NCBI GenBank assembly: GCA_937922235.1
Contig: CAKZVC010000048.1
Span: 1-64,000 of the forward strand
Length of the DNA: 64,000 bases
Direction of reading: 5' to 3'
From: an uncultured Acidimicrobiales bacterium
GTDB taxonomy: Bacteria; Actinomycetota; Acidimicrobiia; Acidimicrobiales; SHLQ01
Shown here: positions 39,015 to 59,960 of the stretch, piece by piece
Position numbering within the stretch: position 1 is the first letter of the stretch
Layout: each line of letters opens with the position of its first letter
The notes under the pieces: generated by a model
The model's input: the letters and a program-made list of their open reading frames with translations, nothing else
What the model was told of the DNA's origin: nothing
Databases searched by the model: none
Translations under genes and position numbers: made by a program

Positions 39015-41468
39015 ATGACAATGATGGATGATCGCGGTTCAGCGACCCTCAGTGCGGCGGACGTACATGGGGATTCGGAAACCGAGATGCCGACAGGTAT
39101 GCGAGTCAAGAAGCGCAACGGTTCACTTGAACCTGTCGACCTCAACAAAATCGTGAATGCGGTAGCGCGATGTGCTGAGGGCCTCCTCAACGTCGATGCC
39201 ATGCGAGTGGCACAGCGGACGATCTCCGCTCTCGCCGACGGCGCCACCACTCGAGAGCTCGATGAGCTCTCGATCCGCACAGCTGCGGGGTTCACGGTGG
39301 AAGAGCCGAACTACTCCAAGCTCGCGGCACGGTTGCTCGCAACCTACGTAGACAAGGAAGTTCGCAACCAGAACATCCCATGGTTCTCCGAGTCGATCCG
39401 CATGGGCCACTCCGTTGGCCTCATCGGTGACGACGTTGCTGCATTCGTCGAAGCAAACGCCCCGGCACTCAACGCCGCCATCAACACCGACCGCGACCGC
39501 AAGTTCGAGTTCTTTGGCCTTCGCACCGTCTACGACCGGTACTTGCTCCGTCATCCCGAGACCCGGTTCGTCACCGAGACCCCGCAGTACTTCTTCCTGC
39601 GTGTCGCCTGTGGCCTCTCCCAGAACGCCGACGAAGCAATCCGCTTCTACGACCTCATGAGCAGCCTCGCGTACCTGCCGTCGAGCCCGACCCTGTTCAA
39701 CTCCGGCACCCGCCACGCACAGATGAGCTCGTGCTACCTCCTCGACTCCCCAGAGGACAGCCTCGAAGGCATCTACAAGCGCTACACCGACATCGCTCGC
39801 CTCTCGAAGTTCGCTGGCGGCATTGGCGTTGCGTGGCACCGCATCCGCTCGAAGGGCTCCCTCATCCAGGGAACCAACGGACTCTCTAATGGCATCGTAC
39901 CGTGGCTCAAGACGCTCGACTCGTCAGTCGCTGCAGTGAACCAGGGTGGCCGTCGTAAGGGTGCAGCGTGCATCTACCTCGAGACCTGGCACGCCGACAT
40001 CGAAGAGTTCCTCGACCTGCGTGAGAACACCGGCGATCACATGCGCCGTGCGCACCAGCTGAACCTCGCCAACTGGGTGCCAGACCTCTTCATGGAGCGC
40101 GTCGACAAGGACTGGCAGTGGAGCCTGTTCGACCCATCCAAGGTTCCGCACCTCACCGACCTCTTCGGTGAAGAGTTCCGCACCGCTTACGAAGAAGCCG
40201 AAGCTGCAGGCCTGTACGAGCGTCAGGTCAAGGCCCGCGATCTCTACAGCCGTATGATGCGCAGCCTCGCTCAGACCGGCAACGGCTGGATGACGTTCAA
40301 GGATGCCTCCAACGAGAAGTGCAACCAGACCGGTATGGCCTCCGACGATGGCACCGCCAACGTTGTGCATCTGTCGAACCTTTGCACCGAGATCATCGAG
40401 GTCACCAACCAAAAAGAGACCGCAGTCTGCAACCTCGGCTCGCTCAACCTTGGCGAGTTCGTGGATGCCGACGGCGAGTTCAACTTTGAGCGCCTTGCCG
40501 AGACCGTCCTTCACGTGATGCCGTACCTCGATCGAGTCATCGACATCAACTTCTACCCAACCGACGAAGCCGGTCACTCGAACAACAAGTGGCGCCCAGT
40601 CGGCCTTGGCCTCATGGGTCTCCAGGACGTCTTCTTCAAGAAGGGTCTGGCGTTCGACTCCGACGAGGCCCGTGCCCTGTCGGCTCGCATCTCCGAAGAG
40701 ATCTACCTCAACGCCCTTACCGCATCGACGATGCTTGCAGAAGAGTTCGGACCGCACGAGACCTACGACCGCACTCGTGCCGCCAAGGGTGACCTCCAGT
40801 TCGACCTCTGGAACGTCGAGCCAACCCAGACCGAACGTTGGGCCGAAGTTCGCGAGCGCATTGCTAAGCACGGCCTTCGCAACTCACTCATGATCGCTAT
40901 TGCTCCAACCGCAACGATCGCATCGATCTCCGGTTGCTATGAGTGCATTGAGCCGCAGGTATCGAACCTGTTCAAGCGCGAGACCCTGTCGGGCGAGTTC
41001 CTGCAGATCAACCGCTACCTCGTCAAGGAGCTGCAGAGCCGAGGCCTCTGGGACGCCGAGATGATCAACGATCTCAAGCAGTCCGAGGGTTCGGTCCAGC
41101 ACATTGCACGTATCCCAGAAGATCTCCGTGAGGTGTACCGCACTGCGTGGGAGCTTCCAATGCGTTCGCTCATCGATATGGCAGCCGATCGCGGTGCCTA
41201 CATCGATCAGAGCCAGTCGCTGAACTTGTTCATGGAGTCGCCGAACATCGGCAAGCTCTCCTCGATGTACATGTACGCCTGGAAATCTGGTCTCAAGACC
41301 ACGTATTACCTGCGTTCACGCCCAGCGACGCGAATTAACAAGACCACCACTACTCCAGGTGGAAGCGGTCCGGCACCTACCAACGGTGGTGAACCGAAGG
41401 TCTTTACCGACGAAGAGGCGCTGGCTTGTTCGCTCGAAAATCCGGAGCATTGCGAAGCTTGCGACTGA
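39015..41468 (+). CDS. nrdA: Ribonucleoside-diphosphate reductase class I, alpha subunit
   Basis: 817 aa. Reduces ribonucleotides to deoxyribonucleotides. N-terminal ATP-cone (about 28-115; RVKKRNGSLEPVDLNKIVNA) for allosteric activity control, then the ten-stranded barrel with active-site Cys in MSSCYLLD, the radical Cys/Glu in NLCTEIIE, the partner Cys in AVCNLGSLNL, and MIAIAPTATIASISG. The C-terminal tail HCEACD holds the redox-relay Cys pair. Start: ATG 39015, with further ATGs at 39021 and 39024. Partner gene 76 bp downstream. Confidence 0.97.
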   Translation: MTMMDDRGSATLSAADVHGDSETEMPTGMRVKKRNGSLEPVDLNKIVNAVARCAEGLLNVDAMRVAQRTISALADGATTRELDELSIRTAAGFTVEEPNYSKLAARLLATYVDKEVRNQNIPWFSESIRMGHSVGLIGDDVAAFVEANAPALNAAINTDRDRKFEFFGLRTVYDRYLLRHPETRFVTETPQYFFLRVACGLSQNADEAIRFYDLMSSLAYLPSSPTLFNSGTRHAQMSSCYLLDSPEDSLEGIYKRYTDIARLSKFAGGIGVAWHRIRSKGSLIQGTNGLSNGIVPWLKTLDSSVAAVNQGGRRKGAACIYLETWHADIEEFLDLRENTGDHMRRAHQLNLANWVPDLFMERVDKDWQWSLFDPSKVPHLTDLFGEEFRTAYEEAEAAGLYERQVKARDLYSRMMRSLAQTGNGWMTFKDASNEKCNQTGMASDDGTANVVHLSNLCTEIIEVTNQKETAVCNLGSLNLGEFVDADGEFNFERLAETVLHVMPYLDRVIDINFYPTDEAGHSNNKWRPVGLGLMGLQDVFFKKGLAFDSDEARALSARISEEIYLNALTASTMLAEEFGPHETYDRTRAAKGDLQFDLWNVEPTQTERWAEVRERIAKHGLRNSLMIAIAPTATIASISGCYECIEPQVSNLFKRETLSGEFLQINRYLVKELQSRGLWDAEMINDLKQSEGSVQHIARIPEDLREVYRTAWELPMRSLIDMAADRGAYIDQSQSLNLFMESPNIGKLSSMYMYAWKSGLKTTYYLRSRPATRINKTTTTPGGSGPAPTNGGEPKVFTDEEALACSLENPEHCEACD

Positions 41469-41544: not shown

Positions 41545-42630
41545 ATGGCCCTTATTGACGACGCCTTGAACCCCGATTTCGACGGAGTTCCCGCAACCAG
41601 CGGCGCCGCAGCAACCAATACTCGCCCAAAGAACATCCTCGATCCGGGGTTTGATCTGACGTTGCGCCCTATGCGGTATCCAACGTTCTACGGGATGTAT
41701 CAGGACGCGATTAAGAACACGTGGACCGTCGACGAGATCGACTTCTCCGACGATTTGGTCGACTTGGAGCGCAAGCTGATGCCGGCTGAGCGTCACCTGG
41801 TGCGTCGCCTTGTGGCCTTCTTCGCAACGGGCGATTCGATCGTGGCGAACAACCTGGTGCTCAACCTGTACCAGCACATCAACGCTCCTGAAGCACGCAT
41901 GTACCTGTCGCGTCAGCTGTACGAAGAGGCGCTGCACGTGCAGTTCTACCTCACGCTGCTCGACAACTACATCCCTGATCACGACGAGCGCGCCGAAGCG
42001 TTTGCTGCGGTCGAGAACATTCCGTCGATTCGCCAGAAGGCCGAGTTCTGCTTCAAGTGGATGAACTCGATCGAGGGGCTCGACCGCATCGAGACCAAGG
42101 AAGAGCGCAAGTCGTTCCTCCTCAACCTCATTTGCTTTGCTGCATGCATCGAGGGCCTGTTCTTCTTCGCAGCGTTCGCCTACGTCTACTTCCTTCGTAG
42201 CAAGGGCCTCCTCAACGGCCTTGCAGCTGGAACCAACTGGGTGTTCCGCGACGAGTCCTGCCACATGAACTTCGCTCTCGAGGTCATCAACACCGTTCGC
42301 GCTGAAGAGCCTGACCTGTTCGATGCTGATCTCGAAGAGCAGATCAAGCAGATGCTCGACGAAGCTATCGAGTGCGAATACCAGTTCGCCGCCGACGTAC
42401 TTGCCGAGGGTGTCCAGGGCATGAGCCTCGCCGACACCAAGGTCTACCTGCAGTTCGTTGCCGACCAGCGCCTGGCGCTTCTCGGTATCTCCCCGCAGTA
42501 CAACGTCAAGAACCCGTTCGACTTCATGGAGCTTCAGGACGTCCAGGAGCTCACGAACTTCTTCGAGCGCACCGTCTCGGCCTACCAGGTAGGCGTTGAA
42601 GGCGAAGTCGGCTTCGACGACGATTTCTAA
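41545..42630 (+). CDS. nrdB: Ribonucleoside-diphosphate reductase class I, beta subunit
   Basis: 361 aa di-metal radical subunit. Metal ligands visible: Asp in ATGDSIVANN, Glu/His in YEEALHVQFY with the radical Tyr four residues after His, Glu in IEGLFFF, and Glu/His in RDESCHMNF. The last 33 residues (E329-F361) are the flexible tail that docks onto the alpha subunit; its DNA is repeated almost exactly at 45492-45593. A terminator follows 35 bp after the stop. Confidence 0.97.
   Translation: MALIDDALNPDFDGVPATSGAAATNTRPKNILDPGFDLTLRPMRYPTFYGMYQDAIKNTWTVDEIDFSDDLVDLERKLMPAERHLVRRLVAFFATGDSIVANNLVLNLYQHINAPEARMYLSRQLYEEALHVQFYLTLLDNYIPDHDERAEAFAAVENIPSIRQKAEFCFKWMNSIEGLDRIETKEERKSFLLNLICFAACIEGLFFFAAFAYVYFLRSKGLLNGLAAGTNWVFRDESCHMNFALEVINTVRAEEPDLFDADLEEQIKQMLDEAIECEYQFAADVLAEGVQGMSLADTKVYLQFVADQRLALLGISPQYNVKNPFDFMELQDVQELTNFFERTVSAYQVGVEGEVGFDDDF
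42529..42630 (+). repeat. 102-bp direct repeat, copy 1 (3' end of nrdB)
   Basis: Identical to 45492-45593 except T42624 versus C45587 (101/102). It begins at the first base of a GAG codon and ends with the last base of the TAA stop; identity breaks immediately on both sides. Copies are 2963 bp apart, same orientation. Confidence 0.98.
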
Positions 42631-42662
42631 CGGGCTTCGCCCGATCGGGCGAGGGTCTGAAG

Positions 42663-42695
42663 AGAGCGGCGCTTGGCGCCGCTTTCTTGCTTTTT
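42663..42695 (+). terminator. Intrinsic terminator of nrdAB
   Basis: AGCGGCGC (42665-42672) pairs with GCGCCGCT (42676-42683), extended by two further pairs, and is followed by TTCTTGCTTTTT ending at 42695. Confidence 0.9.
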
Positions 42696-42759: not shown

Positions 42760-43758
42760 ATGAAGTCGAACACCAAAATCAACGTCACTTACGAGGACAT
42801 CGTCGCAGCGCTCGATAGCCACACTGACCCTGACCGCGTTTGGTGCGAGCTCACCGCTCGAGCGACCAACCCGTTCGATGGTCGTCGAATGATCATGTGG
42901 TTCGGCGGTGTGCTGGCACTTCTGGCCTCCACCATCTTCCTCGGCACCGCAGGCATCTCCTTCGGTGTGCTTGGCTTCGGGGCATCGCTCGCAGCGGTCA
43001 TGCTGATGCTGATCAGTGGCGGTTGGTTTCTCACGAGCAAGGGCCATCACTTCGCTGGCGGCCTGCTCGCCACGCTCTTCTCGGGGCTCGTGCCATTGCT
43101 CGTGTTCTCGATCAGTGATCTTCTCGGAGTGCACGCACAGTACTCCGACTACAGCAGCTTCTACTCCTACATCAGTTCTCAATGGGTCTGGATGGAAGTG
43201 GCGACCATCCTCGTCGGCATGATTGTCGTCTGGAGGTTCGACTTCGGATTTGCGACCCTTCCCCCAGCGCTCGCCGCCTACTTCTTTGTGATGGACGCAG
43301 GCGTTGGACTGTTCGACTTTGGATTCGCCACCTTGTCGATGGTCTTGGGTCTGGTGCTGGGCACAGCAATGGTGCTCGTTGGCGTGTGGTTCGAGAAGAT
43401 CGATAAGCCAGGACATGCAACCTGGCTGCTGATCTACGGCCTTTCGTCGATCCTCTTCGGTGCGAACGAACTGAGTAGTAGCGACACTGCTCAGGCACTG
43501 ATCTACCTCGGGCTTGGCCTGAGTTTCTTGCTGCTTGGCTGGTCGATTGAACGTGGCATCCCCGTCACGATTGGAGCGTTGGCGGTCACGAGCGCCCTGG
43601 CGTACCTGACGTACGACGTCTTTGACGGCTCCATCGTGTTCTCACTGTGTGTCTTCGCAGTGGGAGTTGCCATCGTTGTTGCCGCGACGTTGATTAAGCC
43701 TCGAACAGAAGCTAACGATGCTGATCGATCAGAATTGGGTTTCCGTCCGGGTCGATGA
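42760..43758 (+). CDS. Multi-pass membrane protein of unknown function
   Basis: 332 aa. After about 45 soluble residues come roughly ten hydrophobic segments to the C terminus, with a periplasmic-looking Tyr/Ser-rich loop (YSDYSSFYSYISSQ, about 128-141). Reminiscent of DUF2157-like membrane proteins, but I do not recognise a family firmly. The 3' end overlaps the convergent VOC gene by 47 bp, so the last 15 codons are shared with the other strand. Confidence 0.7.
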   Translation: MKSNTKINVTYEDIVAALDSHTDPDRVWCELTARATNPFDGRRMIMWFGGVLALLASTIFLGTAGISFGVLGFGASLAAVMLMLISGGWFLTSKGHHFAGGLLATLFSGLVPLLVFSISDLLGVHAQYSDYSSFYSYISSQWVWMEVATILVGMIVVWRFDFGFATLPPALAAYFFVMDAGVGLFDFGFATLSMVLGLVLGTAMVLVGVWFEKIDKPGHATWLLIYGLSSILFGANELSSSDTAQALIYLGLGLSFLLLGWSIERGIPVTIGALAVTSALAYLTYDVFDGSIVFSLCVFAVGVAIVVAATLIKPRTEANDADRSELGFRPGR

Positions 43759-44116
43759 CCATGAACGAGGCGGGGCCAGAATCGGAATCGCTAGTCGTGT
43801 CGCTATCAACTGGGACTCCGGCGCTGGTCAGTGCGTCACGCACCTGGCGGATGTCGTCGAAGTCATCGAGCTCGGCGGCGCTTTGGGTCCAGCCAGGGTT
43901 GAACGTAAGCATGGGTTTGTCGAACATGCCTTGGAAGAGCCCGATGGTCGCAAGCCCGTTCTTCAGCATGCACCACGAACCCTCGTCTCCGCCCATAGCG
44001 GTGAAGCCCAGCTTCTCGTAGAACGCAATCGAGGCCGCCAGGTCGCCAACGGGCAGGCTGATGGAGAAGGCGCCTAGCGAAGACACCTCGTCGGACAGTT
44101 CATTGTTGTCGGTCAT
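43712..44116 (-). CDS. VOC superfamily (glyoxalase/bleomycin resistance-like) protein
   Basis: 134 aa from ATG 44116; upstream in-frame codons run into the next gene's promoter and are rejected. FSISLPVGDLAASIAFYEKLGF is the classic first beta-alpha-beta unit, and ASFMVIDPDGNPILIDQH the closing strand with the PDGN turn. DDIRQVRDALTSAGVPVD lies between. VOC proteins bind a divalent metal between paired modules and act as isomerases, dioxygenases or antibiotic-binding proteins; the role here is unknown. Confidence 0.88.
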   Translation of the reverse strand: MTDNNELSDEVSSLGAFSISLPVGDLAASIAFYEKLGFTAMGGDEGSWCMLKNGLATIGLFQGMFDKPMLTFNPGWTQSAAELDDFDDIRQVRDALTSAGVPVDSDTTSDSDSGPASFMVIDPDGNPILIDQHR

Positions 44117-44229: not shown

Positions 44230-44709
44230 ATGACGACAACAGCTTTCAACGGTCTTGATCTCGACGAACTGCAGCGGGTCCTCGACGAAGGCATCGACCA
44301 TGGCGGTAATCCGGTCGAGCCGTATACCGATGAGAACGGCGGCTGGCCGCTCCGCTGCTGCCTCGGCTTCTCGAACGTTGGTGACGAGATTGCCCTGATC
44401 GCGTGGTCACCATTCGAGTGGACAGGCGTGTATGCCGAGACCGGGCCGGTCTTTGTGCACACTTCGCCGTGCTCGGGACCGGCGACCACCGACGAGCTGC
44501 CGGCTGAGCTCGACGGCCGTCCAATGGTGCTTCGCCCGTATACCCACGATCGTCGCATTGCGTACCACCGAGTCGCGCACGTGCCCGAAGGTGAGTCGCT
44601 AGGCCAACGTGTGACCGAGCTCCTCGCCCACGAAGACGTCGACTTCGTCCATGGACGAAACGTGACAGGCGGCTGCTTCAGCTTTGAGGCTCGTCGCCTC
44701 GAGTCCTAA
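44230..44709 (+). CDS. DUF1203-family protein
   Basis: 159 aa from ATG 44230. Features of the DUF1203 family: WPLRCCLGFSNVGDEIALIAW (paired Cys), ETGPVFVHTSPC, RPYTHDRRIAYHRV and the terminal HGRNVTGGCFSFEARR. Cytosolic, function unknown. It is preceded by the divergent VOC gene (113 bp) and followed 63 bp later by the esterase remnant. Confidence 0.8.
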   Translation: MTTTAFNGLDLDELQRVLDEGIDHGGNPVEPYTDENGGWPLRCCLGFSNVGDEIALIAWSPFEWTGVYAETGPVFVHTSPCSGPATTDELPAELDGRPMVLRPYTHDRRIAYHRVAHVPEGESLGQRVTELLAHEDVDFVHGRNVTGGCFSFEARRLES

Positions 44710-44772: not shown

Positions 44773-45593
44773 ATGAGAAGCCCTAAGGTCTTCAGCGGTG
44801 TGCGCCGCAGCGTTGGTCTGCCCCGACGGCTTCTTCTTGTGTTGTTGGTGGTCGCACTGATGGCCGCAGGCTGTGCGCAATCGGTCGACGAGCCTGGGTT
44901 GCTCACGGACTTTGAGGTCGATGTCGACGAGGAGGTTCGGTTGTACGACGTCTACATTCCGAACGGTCTTGCGGACGGTGAACCTCCAAGGGCATTAGTT
45001 GTTTTGCTGCATGCCCAACGCTCGTCTCGGGAAGATCTTGAAGGACGTTTGCGCGCCCGGTCGCCATATTCTCGATGGCTGGACGTGGCCGAAGAACACG
45101 GGATTGCGCTCCTCATCCCCCAAGGGGTCGAGGGAACCAACGGTCATGCCGGTTGGAATGACTGCCGGGCCGACGTTGAGGGCAACCCAACAACCGATGA
45201 TGTGGCATTCATCAGCGCAGCGGTGCAGGCCACCGTCGACGCCTGGGCCATGGAAAGCCCCCCGTCTTTGCCGTGGGAACGTCCAATGGTGGTCACATGG
45301 CTCAGAGGTTGGCTGACGAGGCGCCGGACCTTCTGGCTGGTATCGGCGTGGTCGCTGCGGGCGTTGCGGTGAACAGCACGTGTGCCCAGTCCGCCAGACC
45401 AATGCCGGCGCTCTTCATGTGGGGGACCGACGACCCGATCGCTCCGTTCGACGGTGGGCCAATGGCGGGCAACCGGGGCGTCATCTCCTCCGAGCTTCAG
45501 GACGTCCAGGAGCTCACGAACTTCTTCGAGCGCACCGTCTCGGCCTACCAGGTAGGCGTTGAAGGCGAAGTCGGCTTCGACGACGACTTCTAA
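44773..45593 (+). pseudogene. Broken lipoprotein esterase (LpqC/PHB depolymerase-like) ending in a copied NrdB tail
   Basis: Starts as a lipoprotein (hydrophobic core then AAGC), followed by an alpha/beta-hydrolase resembling LpqC/polyhydroxybutyrate depolymerases (LVVLLHAQ, WNDCRAD, DDVAFISAAVQATVDAW). At the C6 run 45258-45263 the frame shifts; adding one C restores SPPVFAVGTSNGGHMAQRLA with the G-x-S-x-G nucleophile elbow. The second frame continues through WGTDDPIAPFDGG (acid residue) to codon 45489. It is then replaced in frame by the 33-residue NrdB C-terminal tail plus stop. The catalytic His region is gone. Two independent lesions argue for a pseudogene; the frame change could also be a sequencing error. 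Confidence 0.85.
45492..45593 (+). repeat. 102-bp direct repeat, copy 2 (NrdB tail fused to esterase remnant)
   Basis: Near-identical copy of 42529-42630. It starts on a codon boundary of the esterase frame (after VISS) and supplies the stop codon. 31 bp separate it from the convergent M64 peptidase stop. Confidence 0.98.
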
Positions 45594-55970: not shown

Positions 55971-56723
55971 CTAGCTCTGTCGAGAAATCTCGTAGCTCAC
56001 CAACGACGCTGCTACTGCAGCGTTCAGCGATTCGACCTCGTTGTGCAGCGGGATCGACAGCAAGCCATCGCACGCTGATCGAGCGTTCGCCGACAGCCCA
56101 GCTGATTCATTGCCGATGATGTAGGCCGCCCGTTCGGGCAGCTGTGCATCGAAGAGCGGCTCGCCTGCGCCATCGAGGCCGAACAGGGTAAATCGGTGCT
56201 GCTCAAGGATCGCAATCGCCTCAGTGATGTCTTCGGCGCGCAGGATTGTCGACCGGAACGCAACCCCAGCCGACGCCTTGACCGCAACCGAACCGATCTC
56301 GGCGGTGCCCTTGTGCGGAACGACAACTCCGTCGATGCCCGCCGCAGTGGCCGAACGGAGGATCATCCCAACGTTCGACGGATTGTGCACCTGATCGAGC
56401 ACGAGCAACGAACAGGCATAGTCCTTGCCGCGGCGACGCTTCTCACAGAAGTCGTTGAGGTGCTCCATTGCGGGAACCACGACATCGGCGACGACTCCCT
56501 GGTGGTGTCGGTTTGTCCGGGCAACTGCCGTCACCTTCATCTCCGACACCATCTCGACTGTCACCCGGCGGCTCGCAGCCATACCCGTGATCGTGTCGAT
56601 CTCGGGGCCGTGAGCAGACTCGCTCAGCAATATTTTGTCGAATGTCAGCGTGTCGTCATGCAGCGCTTCGATGATGGGCTTGCGGCCCATCACCGTGAGG
56701 AACGAGTCGCGAGGCGAACTCAC
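55971..56723 (-). CDS. TrmH/SpoU-family RNA 2'-O-methyltransferase
   Basis: 250 aa. N-terminal substrate-binding part (GRKPIIEALHDDTLTFDKIL) and the SPOUT knot: LVLDQVHNPSNVGMILRSAT, AAYIIGNESAGLS and IPLHNEVESLNAAVAASLVSYE hold the three SpoU motifs with the SAM-binding trefoil. Methylates a ribose in rRNA or tRNA; the specific site is not readable. Co-oriented with ileS, overlapping by 4 bp. Confidence 0.93.
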   Translation of the reverse strand: MSSPRDSFLTVMGRKPIIEALHDDTLTFDKILLSESAHGPEIDTITGMAASRRVTVEMVSEMKVTAVARTNRHHQGVVADVVVPAMEHLNDFCEKRRRGKDYACSLLVLDQVHNPSNVGMILRSATAAGIDGVVVPHKGTAEIGSVAVKASAGVAFRSTILRAEDITEAIAILEQHRFTLFGLDGAGEPLFDAQLPERAAYIIGNESAGLSANARSACDGLLSIPLHNEVESLNAAVAASLVSYEISRQS

Positions 56724-59700
56724 TCGGCAACGACGAACGAGAGCGACCCCACGCCAGCAGCGTCGTGGCCGCCTTCGACCGCTCCGTAAGCGATCGACGT
56801 GGCGAGCGTCTGATCGCCGACATAGCTTTCCATTGCTTGCACGGCAGCAGCGCCCTCAGCCGATAGGTCAAGAGTGAGCGAGATCCGGTCAGTGACGACG
56901 AGGTCCTCGGTTTTGCGAGCTTCTTGGATGGCTCGCACAATGTCGCGTGCTAAGCCTTCAGCCTCGAGTTCGGGGGTGAGCTCGGTGTCGAGCACGACGA
57001 CTGCATCGTTCGATGGCAGCGCAGCTGCGGTAACGCCATCGGCCGGCTTGACGTTCAGCGTGTACTCGTCAGTGCTGAGCGTGTAGCCCGCAATGTCGAT
57101 CGACCCGTCATCGTTCTGCGACCACTGGCCTTGCTTGGCTGCGCCGAAGACCTTCTGCACGTCACCACCTAAGCGAGGTCCGAGGACCTTGCCGTTCGGT
57201 TGGAGGACGAACTCGGCGAAGGTGTCGATGTCGTCGGAGAACTCGACCGATTTCACGTTGACCTCGTCGGCAATGAGGTGTGACAGCGTCGAAACCGAGG
57301 CCGTCGATCCTCCGGCGAGCGTGAGCGATTGCAGCGGCAGTCGAACGCGCAGGCCCTGGTCTTCACGCAGGCGAAGCGCGGCCGAGACCACCGAACGAAC
57401 TTGGTCCATACTCGCTACGAGCTCAGGGTCGGCAGGGAAATCGTTGGCATCTGGCCACGCCGCGAGGTGCACGCTTTCTTCACCGGTCAGCGAGGTGTAG
57501 ATCTCTTCGGTGATCATGGGAAGGAACGGTGCTGACAGCCTTAGGAACGTGGTGAGCACGGTGTAGAGCGTGTCGTAGGCGGCTCTCTTGTTGTCGAGAC
57601 TTCCGCTCGACGACCCCACATTGCCGTCTTGTTCGCTACTCTTCGCACCGCTCTCGGAAAGATCTCCCTCGGACCAGAAGCGGTCGCGGCTGCGGCGGAT
57701 GTACCAGTTGTTGAGCGCATCAAGGAACGAGCTGATCTGCTCGGTCGCACCGGCGAGGTCGTACGCCTCCATCCGCTCGGTGGTCGCGTCGATGACCGCA
57801 CGGAGCTTGGCCAGGATGTACCGGTCGAGCTCGTCGGTTGAGTCGGTGCGGAACTCAGCCTTGTGCCCGTCGATGTTCGCATAAAGCGTGAAGAACGAAT
57901 AGGCGTTCCACACCGGCAGCATGACCTGGCGGGTGACGTCGTCGATGCCCTTGTCGGAGATGCGCGCATCTCCGCCACGCACGATGTTCGAGTTCATGAA
58001 GTACCAGCGCAGCGCGTCCGAGCCTTGCTTGTCGAAGATCTCGGTCGGCTCGGTGTAGTTGCGGAGCTTCTTCGACAGCTTCTGGCCATCTTCGGCCAAC
58101 AAGATGCCGTGGCAGATCACGTTCTGGAACGACGGCTTGTCGAACAATGCCCCTGCCAGCACGTGAAGTGTGTAGAACCAGCCGCGAGTCTGGTTGATGT
58201 ACTCGACGATGAAGTCGGCCGGGTAGTGCTCTTCGAACCACTCCTTGTTCTCGAAGGGGTAGTGGACCTGGGCGAACGGCATCGAACCACTCTCGAACCA
58301 GCAGTCGAAGACCTCAGGCACGCGACGCATCATCGACTGACCGGTTGGGTCGTCGGGGTTCGGGCGCACGAGCTCGTCGATGTACGGGCGGTGCAGGTTT
58401 GTTGGGCGAACTCCAAAGTCGGCTTCGAGTTCGTCGAGGCTTCCGTACACATCGATGCGCGGGTACTCGGGGTTGTCGCTGCGCCACACCGGGATCGGGG
58501 AGCCCCAAAAACGGTTGCGGCTGATCGACCAATCGCGGGCACCTTCGAGCCACTTGCCGAAGCGGCCGTTCTGCACGTTGTCGGGGATCCAGTTGATGTC
58601 CTGGTTGAGCTCGACCAGGCGATCGCGGAAGTCGGTGACCTTCACGTACCAGCTCGGAAGTGCCCGGTAGATGATCGGCGTGTCGGTGCGCCAACAGTGT
58701 GGGTAGTTGTGCTCGTAGGTCTCGTGCCGGAACAGCCGGCCGAGCTCCTTGACGTGGCGGATGATGTCGCTGTTGGCCTCGAGCACGTTGCGGCCAGCGA
58801 AGTCGCTGACCTCCTCGGTAAAGCGGCCCTGGTCGTTGACGGGAACGACCATGCCCATGTTGTTCTCTTCGGCGATGCGCTGATCGTCCTCGCCAAAGCC
58901 CGGAGCGGTGTGGACCACGCCGGTGCCTTCGTCGGTCTCGACGAAATCGCCCGACATGACGCGGAAGGCGTTGAGGTCGTCGCGGTCGGCAAAATAGGGG
59001 AGCAGGGGCTCGTACGAACGGCCGATGAGGTCGGTGCCCTTGATGACGCTGTGTTCGGTGGCGCCCTCAAGTTCTTTCTCGTACTTGGCCACGGTGGCCG
59101 AACCCAAGACGATGAACTCGCCGTCGAGTTCCATGACCGAGTAGTCGAGGTCGGGGCCAACGATGAGCCCGAGGTTTGATGGAAGTGTCCACGGGGTCGT
59201 CGTCCAGGCCAGCATCTTCATCGGGCCTGGGTCGCCATCGGCCGGGGTAAGGCTGAACGCGATGGTCACGGCCGGGTCTTGGCGAGGGCGGGTGGCGTCG
59301 TCGAGGCGGATCTCGAAGTTGGACAGCGGCGTCTCGGCGCCCCAGCTGTAGGGCATGACGCGGTTGGCTTCGTAGATGAGGCCCTTGTCCCAGAGTTGCT
59401 TGAACGCCCAGATGACCGACTCCATGTAGTCGAGGTCCATCGTCTTGTAGTCATTCTCGAAGTCGACCCAGCGAGCCTGGCGGGTGACGGTCTTTTCCCA
59501 CTCGCTCGTGTACTTCATGACCGACGTGCGGCATGCATCGTTGAAGTTCGCGATGCCGTATTCGGTGATAGCGACTCGACCAGAGACGTCGAGCTGCTTC
59601 TCGGTTTCCATCTCTGCTGGAAGACCGTGGCAGTCCCAGCCGAAACGGCGTTCAACCTTCTTGCCGCGCATGGTGTGAAAGCGTGGCACGACGTCTTTCA

Positions 59701-59908
59701 CGTAGCCGGTCAGAAGGTGGCCGTGATGCGGAAGTCCGTTCGCGAACGGGGGGCCGTCATAGAAGACGTACTCGTTGTCATCGGGACGTTCGTCGATGGA
59801 CCGTTGGAACGTGTCTGCGGCCTCCCAGCGCTCCAAAATGCGCGCTTCGATAGCCGGAAAATCTGGCTTGTCGACGGCGGGATATGGCTGATCGGCAGCT
59901 GAACTCAT
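56720..59908 (-). CDS. ileS: Isoleucyl-tRNA synthetase
   Basis: 1062 aa from ATG 59908. Class I synthetase: FANGLPHHGHLLTGYVKDVV (HIGH-type), the CP1 editing domain with WTTTPWTLPSNL, and DGQKLSKKLRNYTEP (KMSKS-type, KLSKK). WKYHRRS-like WYIRRSRDRFW lies in the anticodon-binding region, followed by an unusual Ser/Gly-rich insert of about 25 residues (SESGAKSSEQDGNVGSSSGS) before the DTLYTVL helix. The long C-terminal domain is typical of the eukaryote-like IleS group. Charges tRNA-Ile and edits Val. A hairpin covers the start codon (59907-59923). Confidence 0.96.
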   Translation of the reverse strand: MSSAADQPYPAVDKPDFPAIEARILERWEAADTFQRSIDERPDDNEYVFYDGPPFANGLPHHGHLLTGYVKDVVPRFHTMRGKKVERRFGWDCHGLPAEMETEKQLDVSGRVAITEYGIANFNDACRTSVMKYTSEWEKTVTRQARWVDFENDYKTMDLDYMESVIWAFKQLWDKGLIYEANRVMPYSWGAETPLSNFEIRLDDATRPRQDPAVTIAFSLTPADGDPGPMKMLAWTTTPWTLPSNLGLIVGPDLDYSVMELDGEFIVLGSATVAKYEKELEGATEHSVIKGTDLIGRSYEPLLPYFADRDDLNAFRVMSGDFVETDEGTGVVHTAPGFGEDDQRIAEENNMGMVVPVNDQGRFTEEVSDFAGRNVLEANSDIIRHVKELGRLFRHETYEHNYPHCWRTDTPIIYRALPSWYVKVTDFRDRLVELNQDINWIPDNVQNGRFGKWLEGARDWSISRNRFWGSPIPVWRSDNPEYPRIDVYGSLDELEADFGVRPTNLHRPYIDELVRPNPDDPTGQSMMRRVPEVFDCWFESGSMPFAQVHYPFENKEWFEEHYPADFIVEYINQTRGWFYTLHVLAGALFDKPSFQNVICHGILLAEDGQKLSKKLRNYTEPTEIFDKQGSDALRWYFMNSNIVRGGDARISDKGIDDVTRQVMLPVWNAYSFFTLYANIDGHKAEFRTDSTDELDRYILAKLRAVIDATTERMEAYDLAGATEQISSFLDALNNWYIRRSRDRFWSEGDLSESGAKSSEQDGNVGSSSGSLDNKRAAYDTLYTVLTTFLRLSAPFLPMITEEIYTSLTGEESVHLAAWPDANDFPADPELVASMDQVRSVVSAALRLREDQGLRVRLPLQSLTLAGGSTASVSTLSHLIADEVNVKSVEFSDDIDTFAEFVLQPNGKVLGPRLGGDVQKVFGAAKQGQWSQNDDGSIDIAGYTLSTDEYTLNVKPADGVTAAALPSNDAVVVLDTELTPELEAEGLARDIVRAIQEARKTEDLVVTDRISLTLDLSAEGAAAVQAMESYVGDQTLATSIAYGAVEGGHDAAGVGSLSFVVAE

Positions 59909-59960
59909 AGCCCTGAAGGCTATCGGGCCCACACCGGTCAAACAGCGCCATCAGAGTTCA

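What the first reader, a model, noticed from the sequence alone, without database searches (positions are those of the whole stretch)
45492..45593. The nrdB 3' end is duplicated and fused, in frame and through its stop codon, to a truncated esterase
Seen directly: 102 bp at 45492-45593 match 42529-42630 at 101 positions. The block begins on a codon boundary in both genes, ends exactly with TAA, and identity stops at once on both sides. The esterase loses its catalytic-His region and gains the 33-residue NrdB tail, which in class I reductases docks on NrdA. Possibilities: (a) recent non-homologous duplication; (b) scar of a 3'-end-targeting insertion whose repeat regenerates nrdB; (c) a product carrying an NrdA-binding peptide. 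The near-perfect identity, including synonymous sites, implies recency or gene conversion.
Basis: seen in the sequence. Interest (0 to 1): 0.8.

Follow-up and report, generated by a model that had tools for sequence, protein, structure and literature searches.

The report
Insertion scar: displaced end of nrdB
A 102-base stretch that ends a DNA-building enzyme gene appears a second time 3 kb further on, most likely because foreign DNA was spliced in behind the gene and left a spare gene end stranded; it is an ordinary kind of event, but similar scars turn up behind the same gene in unrelated bacteria.

Summary
The repeat is real: 42529-42630 (end of nrdB) and 45492-45593 match at 101 of 102 bases, and they are the only two copies found in this 118-contig draft genome. 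Behind nrdB lies a region that varies in length and content in this genus. The best reading is a scar of DNA import anchored by homology in the nrdB 3' end, most simply one crossover with a circular molecule: nrdB stays whole and a spare gene end is left at the far side, cutting the esterase. In support, an acidobacterium found by nrdB similarity (L151/G399) has the same layout, and two more with repeated nrdB tails turned up in its class, one with three tails in series among toxin-type genes. Their likeness stops at or within a base or two of the stop codon. One-sided integration and gene-end displacement are known processes. Internal duplication and an integrase event are not excluded; a functional fusion is unlikely.

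The parts
39015..41468 (+). nrdA, class I ribonucleotide reductase large subunit
   Evidence: ORF; homologs upstream of nrdB in relatives
41545..42630 (+). nrdB, intact, 361 aa
   Evidence: Pfam PF00268, E 2.7e-79; 93.6% identical to G009
42529..42630 (+). repeat copy 1: the 3' end of nrdB, 33 codons plus stop
42660..42688 (+). terminator-like hairpin behind nrdB (such hairpins show no excess over shuffles in this region)
   Evidence: 3 found, shuffles mean 2.8
42760..43758 (+). unknown protein, hydrophobic by eye; no Pfam hit; one weak match outside this genome
   Evidence: G015 only, of 297 other genomes
43712..44116 (-). glyoxalase-superfamily protein
   Evidence: PF00903 E 4.3e-9
44230..44709 (+). 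DUF1203 protein
   Evidence: PF06718 E 5.6e-30
44773..45372 (+). N-terminal half of a broken esterase (frame 1; the queries used began one codon in, at 44776)
   Evidence: homologs in G015, G037 and weakly G011
45250..45273 (+). zone where the esterase changes frame (C-run 45258-45263)
45273..45491 (+). C-terminal esterase fragment with GTSNGG motif, cut before the region where an intact homolog continues
   Evidence: 43% over 90 aa to L033, E 2e-14; alignment degrades at the junction
45492..45593 (+). repeat copy 2: stranded nrdB 3' end, in frame with the esterase fragment, ends at TAA
45625..46761 (-). convergent ORF, lipoprotein-like by eye, 31 bp behind copy 2; a second family member lies on contig C27 of this genome
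42631..55970 (.). variable region between nrdB and the conserved SpoU methylase/ileS block
   Evidence: flank genes identified
55971..59941 (-). conserved right boundary: SpoU methylase 55971-56723 and class I tRNA synthetase (ileS by my reading) 56720-59941

Best explanation
The second copy is a scar of DNA import behind nrdB. Incoming DNA, probably from a close relative, carried an nrdB 3' end plus other genes (42760 protein, glyoxalase, DUF1203, esterase). It recombined with the resident nrdB by homology; the other join, between the middle of the esterase and the nrdB end, has no homology. The simplest route is a single crossover between nrdB and a circular molecule in which that join already existed; a linear molecule with one homologous and one illegitimate end is the alternative. 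Either way nrdB stays whole, the import lies behind it and the last 102 bp of an nrdB copy are left at the far end. Shown: the repeat, its ends, the broken esterase, the variable region, the same layout in other genomes. Inferred: direction of events, donor, route.
For: (1) The repeat ends at the stop codon (default scoring), where homology between donor and recipient would end; sequences behind the nrdB stop differ among same-genus relatives. (2) Between nrdB and the SpoU/ileS block the distance changes: 353 bp in G003, 2027 in G002, 3008 in G001, 8320 in G009, 13341 here. None of the window proteins tested between 42760 and 50506 matched in the 16 relatives' loci that hold 4.6 to 18 kb behind nrdB. 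(3) The interval's genes are sporadic: the 42760 protein has one weak match in 297 other genomes, the esterase N-half matches 3 of 58 relatives. (4) The esterase is cut at the junction. (5) Same layout in L151/G399 (nrdB, 2.3 kb, nrdB tail, 87 of 102 identical, on a 1-Mb contig), G471 (3 kb, degenerate tail), a series of three tails in G496 whose likeness falls with distance (97, 90, 64%), and a deoxyhypusine-synthase-like gene in L151. Within-genome alignments of these pairs end at or within two bases of the stop. (6) In print: single crossovers in E. coli left sequenced gene-end duplications of 109-950 bp (PMC3240628, passages); displacement of gene ends with serial remnants is modelled for T6SS loci (PMC5361080, passages).
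Against: No donor locus and no empty site was found. In the window a lax gapped alignment ran about 25 nt past the stop. The right flank of copy 2 does not significantly resemble nrdB-downstream sequence of 8 same-genus relatives (local p 0.41 for the best, 0.27 for the sum; anchored p 0.074; copy 1: 0.20, 0.28, 0.98). Only copy 1 has a terminator-like hairpin. Remnants are 65 to about 210 nt long, shorter than random cuts in a 1-kb gene would give; the import model does not predict that. For linear one-sided integration the paper predicts a deletion, not a duplication, which is why I prefer the circle. In the order of the window genome no second clear case was seen (397 genomes, own included).
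Confidence: 0.55

Rival explanations
1. Internal, non-homologous duplication: the nrdB tail was copied into the esterase by template switching, or an insertion made a long target duplication as proposed for restriction-modification genes.
For: Near identity of the copies; a repeat of about 100 bp, and remnants of similar length elsewhere. That restriction-modification genes sometimes insert with long target duplication is stated in PMC3154945 (passage); the original paper was seen only as a citation.
Against: The block stops at the stop codon here under default scoring, and in the within-genome pairs of G399, G471 and G496 at or within two bases of it; a target duplication has no reason to stop there. 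The foreign pairs are diverged, so decay of non-coding flanks could mimic this.
Confidence: 0.23
2. Remnant of an integrative element that targets the 3' end of nrdB with a recombinase and restores it with its own copy, like prophage e14 in icd of E. coli.
For: The layout equals icd/e14/icdC (PMC4759930, passages); repeated nrdB ends occur in two phyla.
Against: No recombinase among the ORFs tested from the interval and its neighbourhood by Pfam or PHROGs, nor among the ORFs tested in the inserts of G399, G471 and G496; no tRNA in the window; 5' ends of the remnants vary widely.
Confidence: 0.11
3. Assembly artefact or strain mixture in a metagenome assembly.
For: In 7 of 17 family genomes with nrdB the contig ends within 530 bp behind nrdB or inside its tail (0.61 expected from rounded genome sizes and contig counts, P 3.7e-6). 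G353 has two tails, 93% alike, at contig ends.
Against: The two copies differ by one base and have four different flanks, so an artefact would need a chimeric join inside the esterase. A dispersed intergenic repeat (27 matches in this genome, 29 in G009) lies behind nrdB in G009, G004, G005 and G001 and can explain such breaks. G399 holds diverged copies on a 1-Mb contig.
Confidence: 0.06
4. A functional esterase-NrdB-tail fusion that docks on NrdA.
For: The fused tail is identical in protein sequence to the last 33 residues of NrdB.
Against: The esterase is frame-broken and lacks its C-terminal part; the ORF carrying the tail is 106 aa from a GTG inside the domain.
Confidence: 0.02

Closest known systems
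Single-crossover integration and homology-facilitated illegitimate recombination
   Same: Foreign DNA enters through homology to one gene end; single crossovers gave 109-950 bp duplications of the lacZ end in sequenced clones (PMC3240628, abstract and passages)
   Different: Seen there in laboratory conjugation with plasmids; here inferred from sequence, no donor known. Linear one-sided integration is expected there to delete, not duplicate
Serial displacement of T6SS effector and Rhs gene ends
   Same: A new module arrives behind a conserved part and old 3' ends are shifted downstream, forming arrays (PMC5361080, passages)
   Different: There the conserved upstream part of the effector module is the anchor and the cargo is an effector-immunity pair; here a housekeeping gene end is the anchor and the cargo is mixed
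Prophage e14 in icd (icdA/icdC)
   Same: Gene end supplied by the insert, original end left at the far side (PMC4759930, passages)
   Different: e14 is a prophage with site-specific recombination in an 11-bp repeat; no recombinase was found here
Insertion with long target duplication (restriction-modification genes)
   Same: Insert flanked by long direct repeats of target sequence (mentioned in PMC3154945, passage)
   Different: Original paper not read; here the repeat ends at a stop codon and the interval shows no restriction-modification gene among the families found

Membership tests
One-sided homologous import (single crossover or HFIR) | Foreign DNA joined at one side within homologous sequence, at the other without | tested here: inconclusive
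   The esterase/tail join at 45491/45492 shows no homology and the nrdB side is seamless, but no donor or empty site was available
One-sided homologous import (single crossover or HFIR) | Duplication ends where donor and recipient homology ends (here the stop codon) | tested here: met
   Window, G399 nrdB and G399 DHS-like pair end at or one base before the stop under default scoring; G471 and G496 pairs at or within two bases. Caveat: lax scoring ran about 25 nt past it in the window
e14-like site-specific element | Recombinase gene in the insert | tested here: not met
   None among the ORFs tested by Pfam or PHROGs
e14-like site-specific element | Intact gene end at one side of the insert, spare end at the other | tested here: met
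Insertion with long target duplication | Long direct repeats of the empty site on both sides of the insert | tested here: inconclusive
   Repeats present; no empty site in a close relative was found
Functional NrdA-binding fusion | Intact ORF carrying partner domain and NrdB tail | tested here: not met
   Frame change in the esterase and loss of its C-terminal part

The most novel reading that the evidence does not exclude
The 3' end of nrdB is a recurrent, integrase-free docking site in at least two phyla: small cargos, among them toxin-type genes, stack up behind it, each insertion renewing the gene end and stranding the previous one, with remnants of roughly 100 bp that point to an undescribed route of capture.
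Probability: 0.13. Interest if true: 0.62.

Novelty: new member of a known kind. Interest (0 to 1): 0.36.

Why it matters
Stranded gene ends are footprints of gene acquisition: they mark where foreign DNA entered, in which order, and which gene served as the anchor. The series in G496 would allow the order of arrivals behind one housekeeping gene to be read. If nrdB proves to be hit more often than other genes, the reason becomes a testable question about how bacteria capture genes without a known integrase.

Tried and rejected
Flank comparison to decide which copy is original: not significant. Contig breaks behind nrdB as evidence of strain-level insertion: the excess is large, but a dispersed intergenic repeat behind nrdB in G009, G004, G005 and G001 is a simpler cause for the genus, so it is not used as support. 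Set aside as assembly or strain effects: G353 (two tails 93% alike at contig ends), G400 (two contigs overlap identically by 141 bp in nrdB), and for the gyrB control G479 (94.5% alike over 199 bp at a contig end). G382 (tail fragment right behind a homolog of the window gene that precedes nrdA) and G275 (frame-broken remnant of residues 209-361) look like loss of nrdAB rather than insertion.

Is nrdB special? In the class of G399, more than one tail in 3 of 49 genomes with an nrdB tail (162 searched) against 0 clear of 149 with a gyrB tail (162 searched), Fisher p 0.014; without the discovery genome 2 of 48 against 0 of 148, p 0.059; counting the orphan tail of G484 but not G399, 3 of 48 against 0 of 148, p 0.014. 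For gyrB three genomes with two matches were not counted: G462 (both full-length frames), G479 and G526 (contig edges; the second G526 match was not listed). Within-locus control: 982 ORFs of at least 150 aa (mechanical, some spurious) in 83 of 98 loci (15 dropped as overlapping) plus the window. The script printed 22 rows. Tails repeated up to a stop without upstream homology: nrdB in the window and in L151, the DHS-like gene in L151, and one gene each in L149 and L153, which lie in local repeats. L155 and L160 (3 rows) had upstream homology as well; the other rows ended without a stop, among them L164 (82% over 28 aa). So nrdB specificity is suggestive only.

The first version of the stop-codon argument compared the G496 and G484 tails with the nrdB of another genome, which says little about what follows the stop; it was redone within G496, while G484 has one tail only and is not used for that point.

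Full report
Observation. Two blocks of 102 bp, 42529-42630 and 45492-45593, agree at 101 positions; the mismatch is at position 96. Ungapped identity is at chance level on both sides; default BLAST ends the match at TAA, a lax gapped scoring runs about 25 nt past it. The draft genome (118 contigs, 87.5% complete) holds these two copies only. The first block is the end of nrdB. The second is in frame with a C-terminal fragment of an esterase. The esterase is broken twice: the N-terminal half (44773-45372) and the fragment with GTSNGG (from 45273) lie in different frames, with a run of six C at 45258-45263 between. An intact homolog in G015 aligns up to the junction and then runs on for about 94 residues. 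No Pfam family was assigned to either esterase piece or to the G015 homolog; the homolog in G037 hits Abhydrolase_2 and Esterase_PHB.

Setting. By nrdB similarity the nearest named records listed are uncultured Acidimicrobiales MAGs (records of the own genome may be left out there). Of 58 relatives searched besides the own genome, 30 match the DNA of the tail, six of them only by 20-40 nt; one of these six (G048) has two such weak matches, and no relative has two good copies. Between nrdB and a conserved SpoU methylase/ileS block the distance changes from 353 bp to 13.3 kb among the same-genus genomes read, with different genes in between. None of the window proteins tested between 42760 and 50506 matched in the 16 loci that hold 4.6 to 18 kb behind nrdB. 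No recombinase was found among the ORFs tested, and ARAGORN found no tRNA gene in the window.

The same layout elsewhere. Of 104 nrdB loci compared (some genomes twice), one, L151 from an acidobacterium, has a second nrdB tail 2.4 kb behind the first: 87 of 102 identical, ending at a stop codon. Between them lies a gene with Ig-like domains. In the same locus a deoxyhypusine-synthase-like gene has its last 93 bp repeated about 0.6 kb on, behind an antitoxin gene (PF09720) and a second small gene that looks like a ParE-type toxin (my reading; no Pfam hit). In the class of that genome an nrdB tail was found in 49 of 162 genomes; three have more than one: G399 (the genome of L151), G471 and G496. 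G471 has a PhoD-like phosphatase gene and a DUF3465 gene between nrdB and a degenerate tail. G496 has three tails in series, with an AAA ATPase gene after the first, a PIN-domain gene after the second and a PIN plus MazE-type pair after the third. The first tail there is itself only the last 69 residues of nrdB; no full nrdB was seen in the 15 kb read of that 21.8-kb contig, and no other tail in the genome. G484 has an orphan tail beside a PIN-domain gene. In the order of the window genome a tail was found in 143 of 397 genomes, own included; two matches only in the own genome and in G353, the latter ambiguous because both lie at contig ends.

What the remnants share. Aligned within each genome without anchoring, the pairs end at or within two bases of the stop codon: G399 nrdB 125 columns, G399 DHS-like 93, G471 177, G496 89, 65 and 81; the window pair ends at the stop under default scoring. 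This is expected if a homologous gene end came in with other DNA, because likeness ends where the gene ends. A target duplication would end anywhere; but in the diverged pairs decay of non-coding flanks could have the same effect, so the recent window pair weighs most. The 5' ends lie 65 to about 210 nt before the stop. This narrow range is not explained by the import model and remains open.

Mechanism. I favour import anchored in nrdB by homology, most simply a single crossover with a circular molecule. In E. coli, single crossovers left gene-end duplications of 109-950 bp in 14 sequenced clones, whereas true linear one-sided integration was rare and expected to delete (PMC3240628, abstract and passages). 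A displacement model with serial remnants is published for T6SS effector loci (PMC5361080, passages). An e14-like event (PMC4759930, passages) fits the layout but not the missing recombinase. Which copy is original could not be shown: flank tests were not significant.

Is nrdB special? Suggestive only: 3 of 49 against 0 clear of 149 for gyrB in one class, p 0.014; 2 of 48 against 0 of 148 without the discovery genome, p 0.059. A within-locus control shows that other genes also have repeated ends. Literature: searches for nrdB + attB + integrase (6 papers listed; one looked at in a passage, which reports an nrdB gene carried on an integrative element) and for nrdB + truncated copy + genomic island (0 papers) showed no report of nrdB ends as such scars; this covers only the open library searched, and five of the six listed papers were not opened.

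Noticed in passing
window 45250-45273: The esterase changes frame near a run of six C, upstream of the fusion; the gene is broken twice, or the assembly has an error here.
   Followed up: partly
L036:8671-8788 (G009) and relatives: A dispersed intergenic repeat of about 100 bp sits behind nrdB in G009, G004, G005 and G001; 27 matches in the window's genome, 29 in G009, 25 in G010, 23 in G007.
   Followed up: partly
L151:19959-20759: Deoxyhypusine-synthase-like gene with its 93-bp end repeated behind an antitoxin gene and a small partner gene, within 10 kb of the repeated nrdB end.
   Followed up: partly
L198:3533-6281 (G496): Three nrdB tails in series separated by an AAA ATPase gene and a PIN-domain gene, followed by a PIN/MazE-type pair.
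   Followed up: partly
L190:4532-5950 (G382): nrdB tail fragment directly behind a homolog (44% identity) of the gene that precedes nrdA in the window: looks like a deletion scar of nrdAB.
   Followed up: partly
L191 (G275), contig positions 111005-111464: Frame-broken remnant of nrdB residues 209-361 without the 5' part.
   Followed up: no
nrdB loci of 17 family genomes: In 7 of 17 the contig ends within 530 bp behind nrdB or inside its tail, against 0.61 expected.
   Followed up: partly
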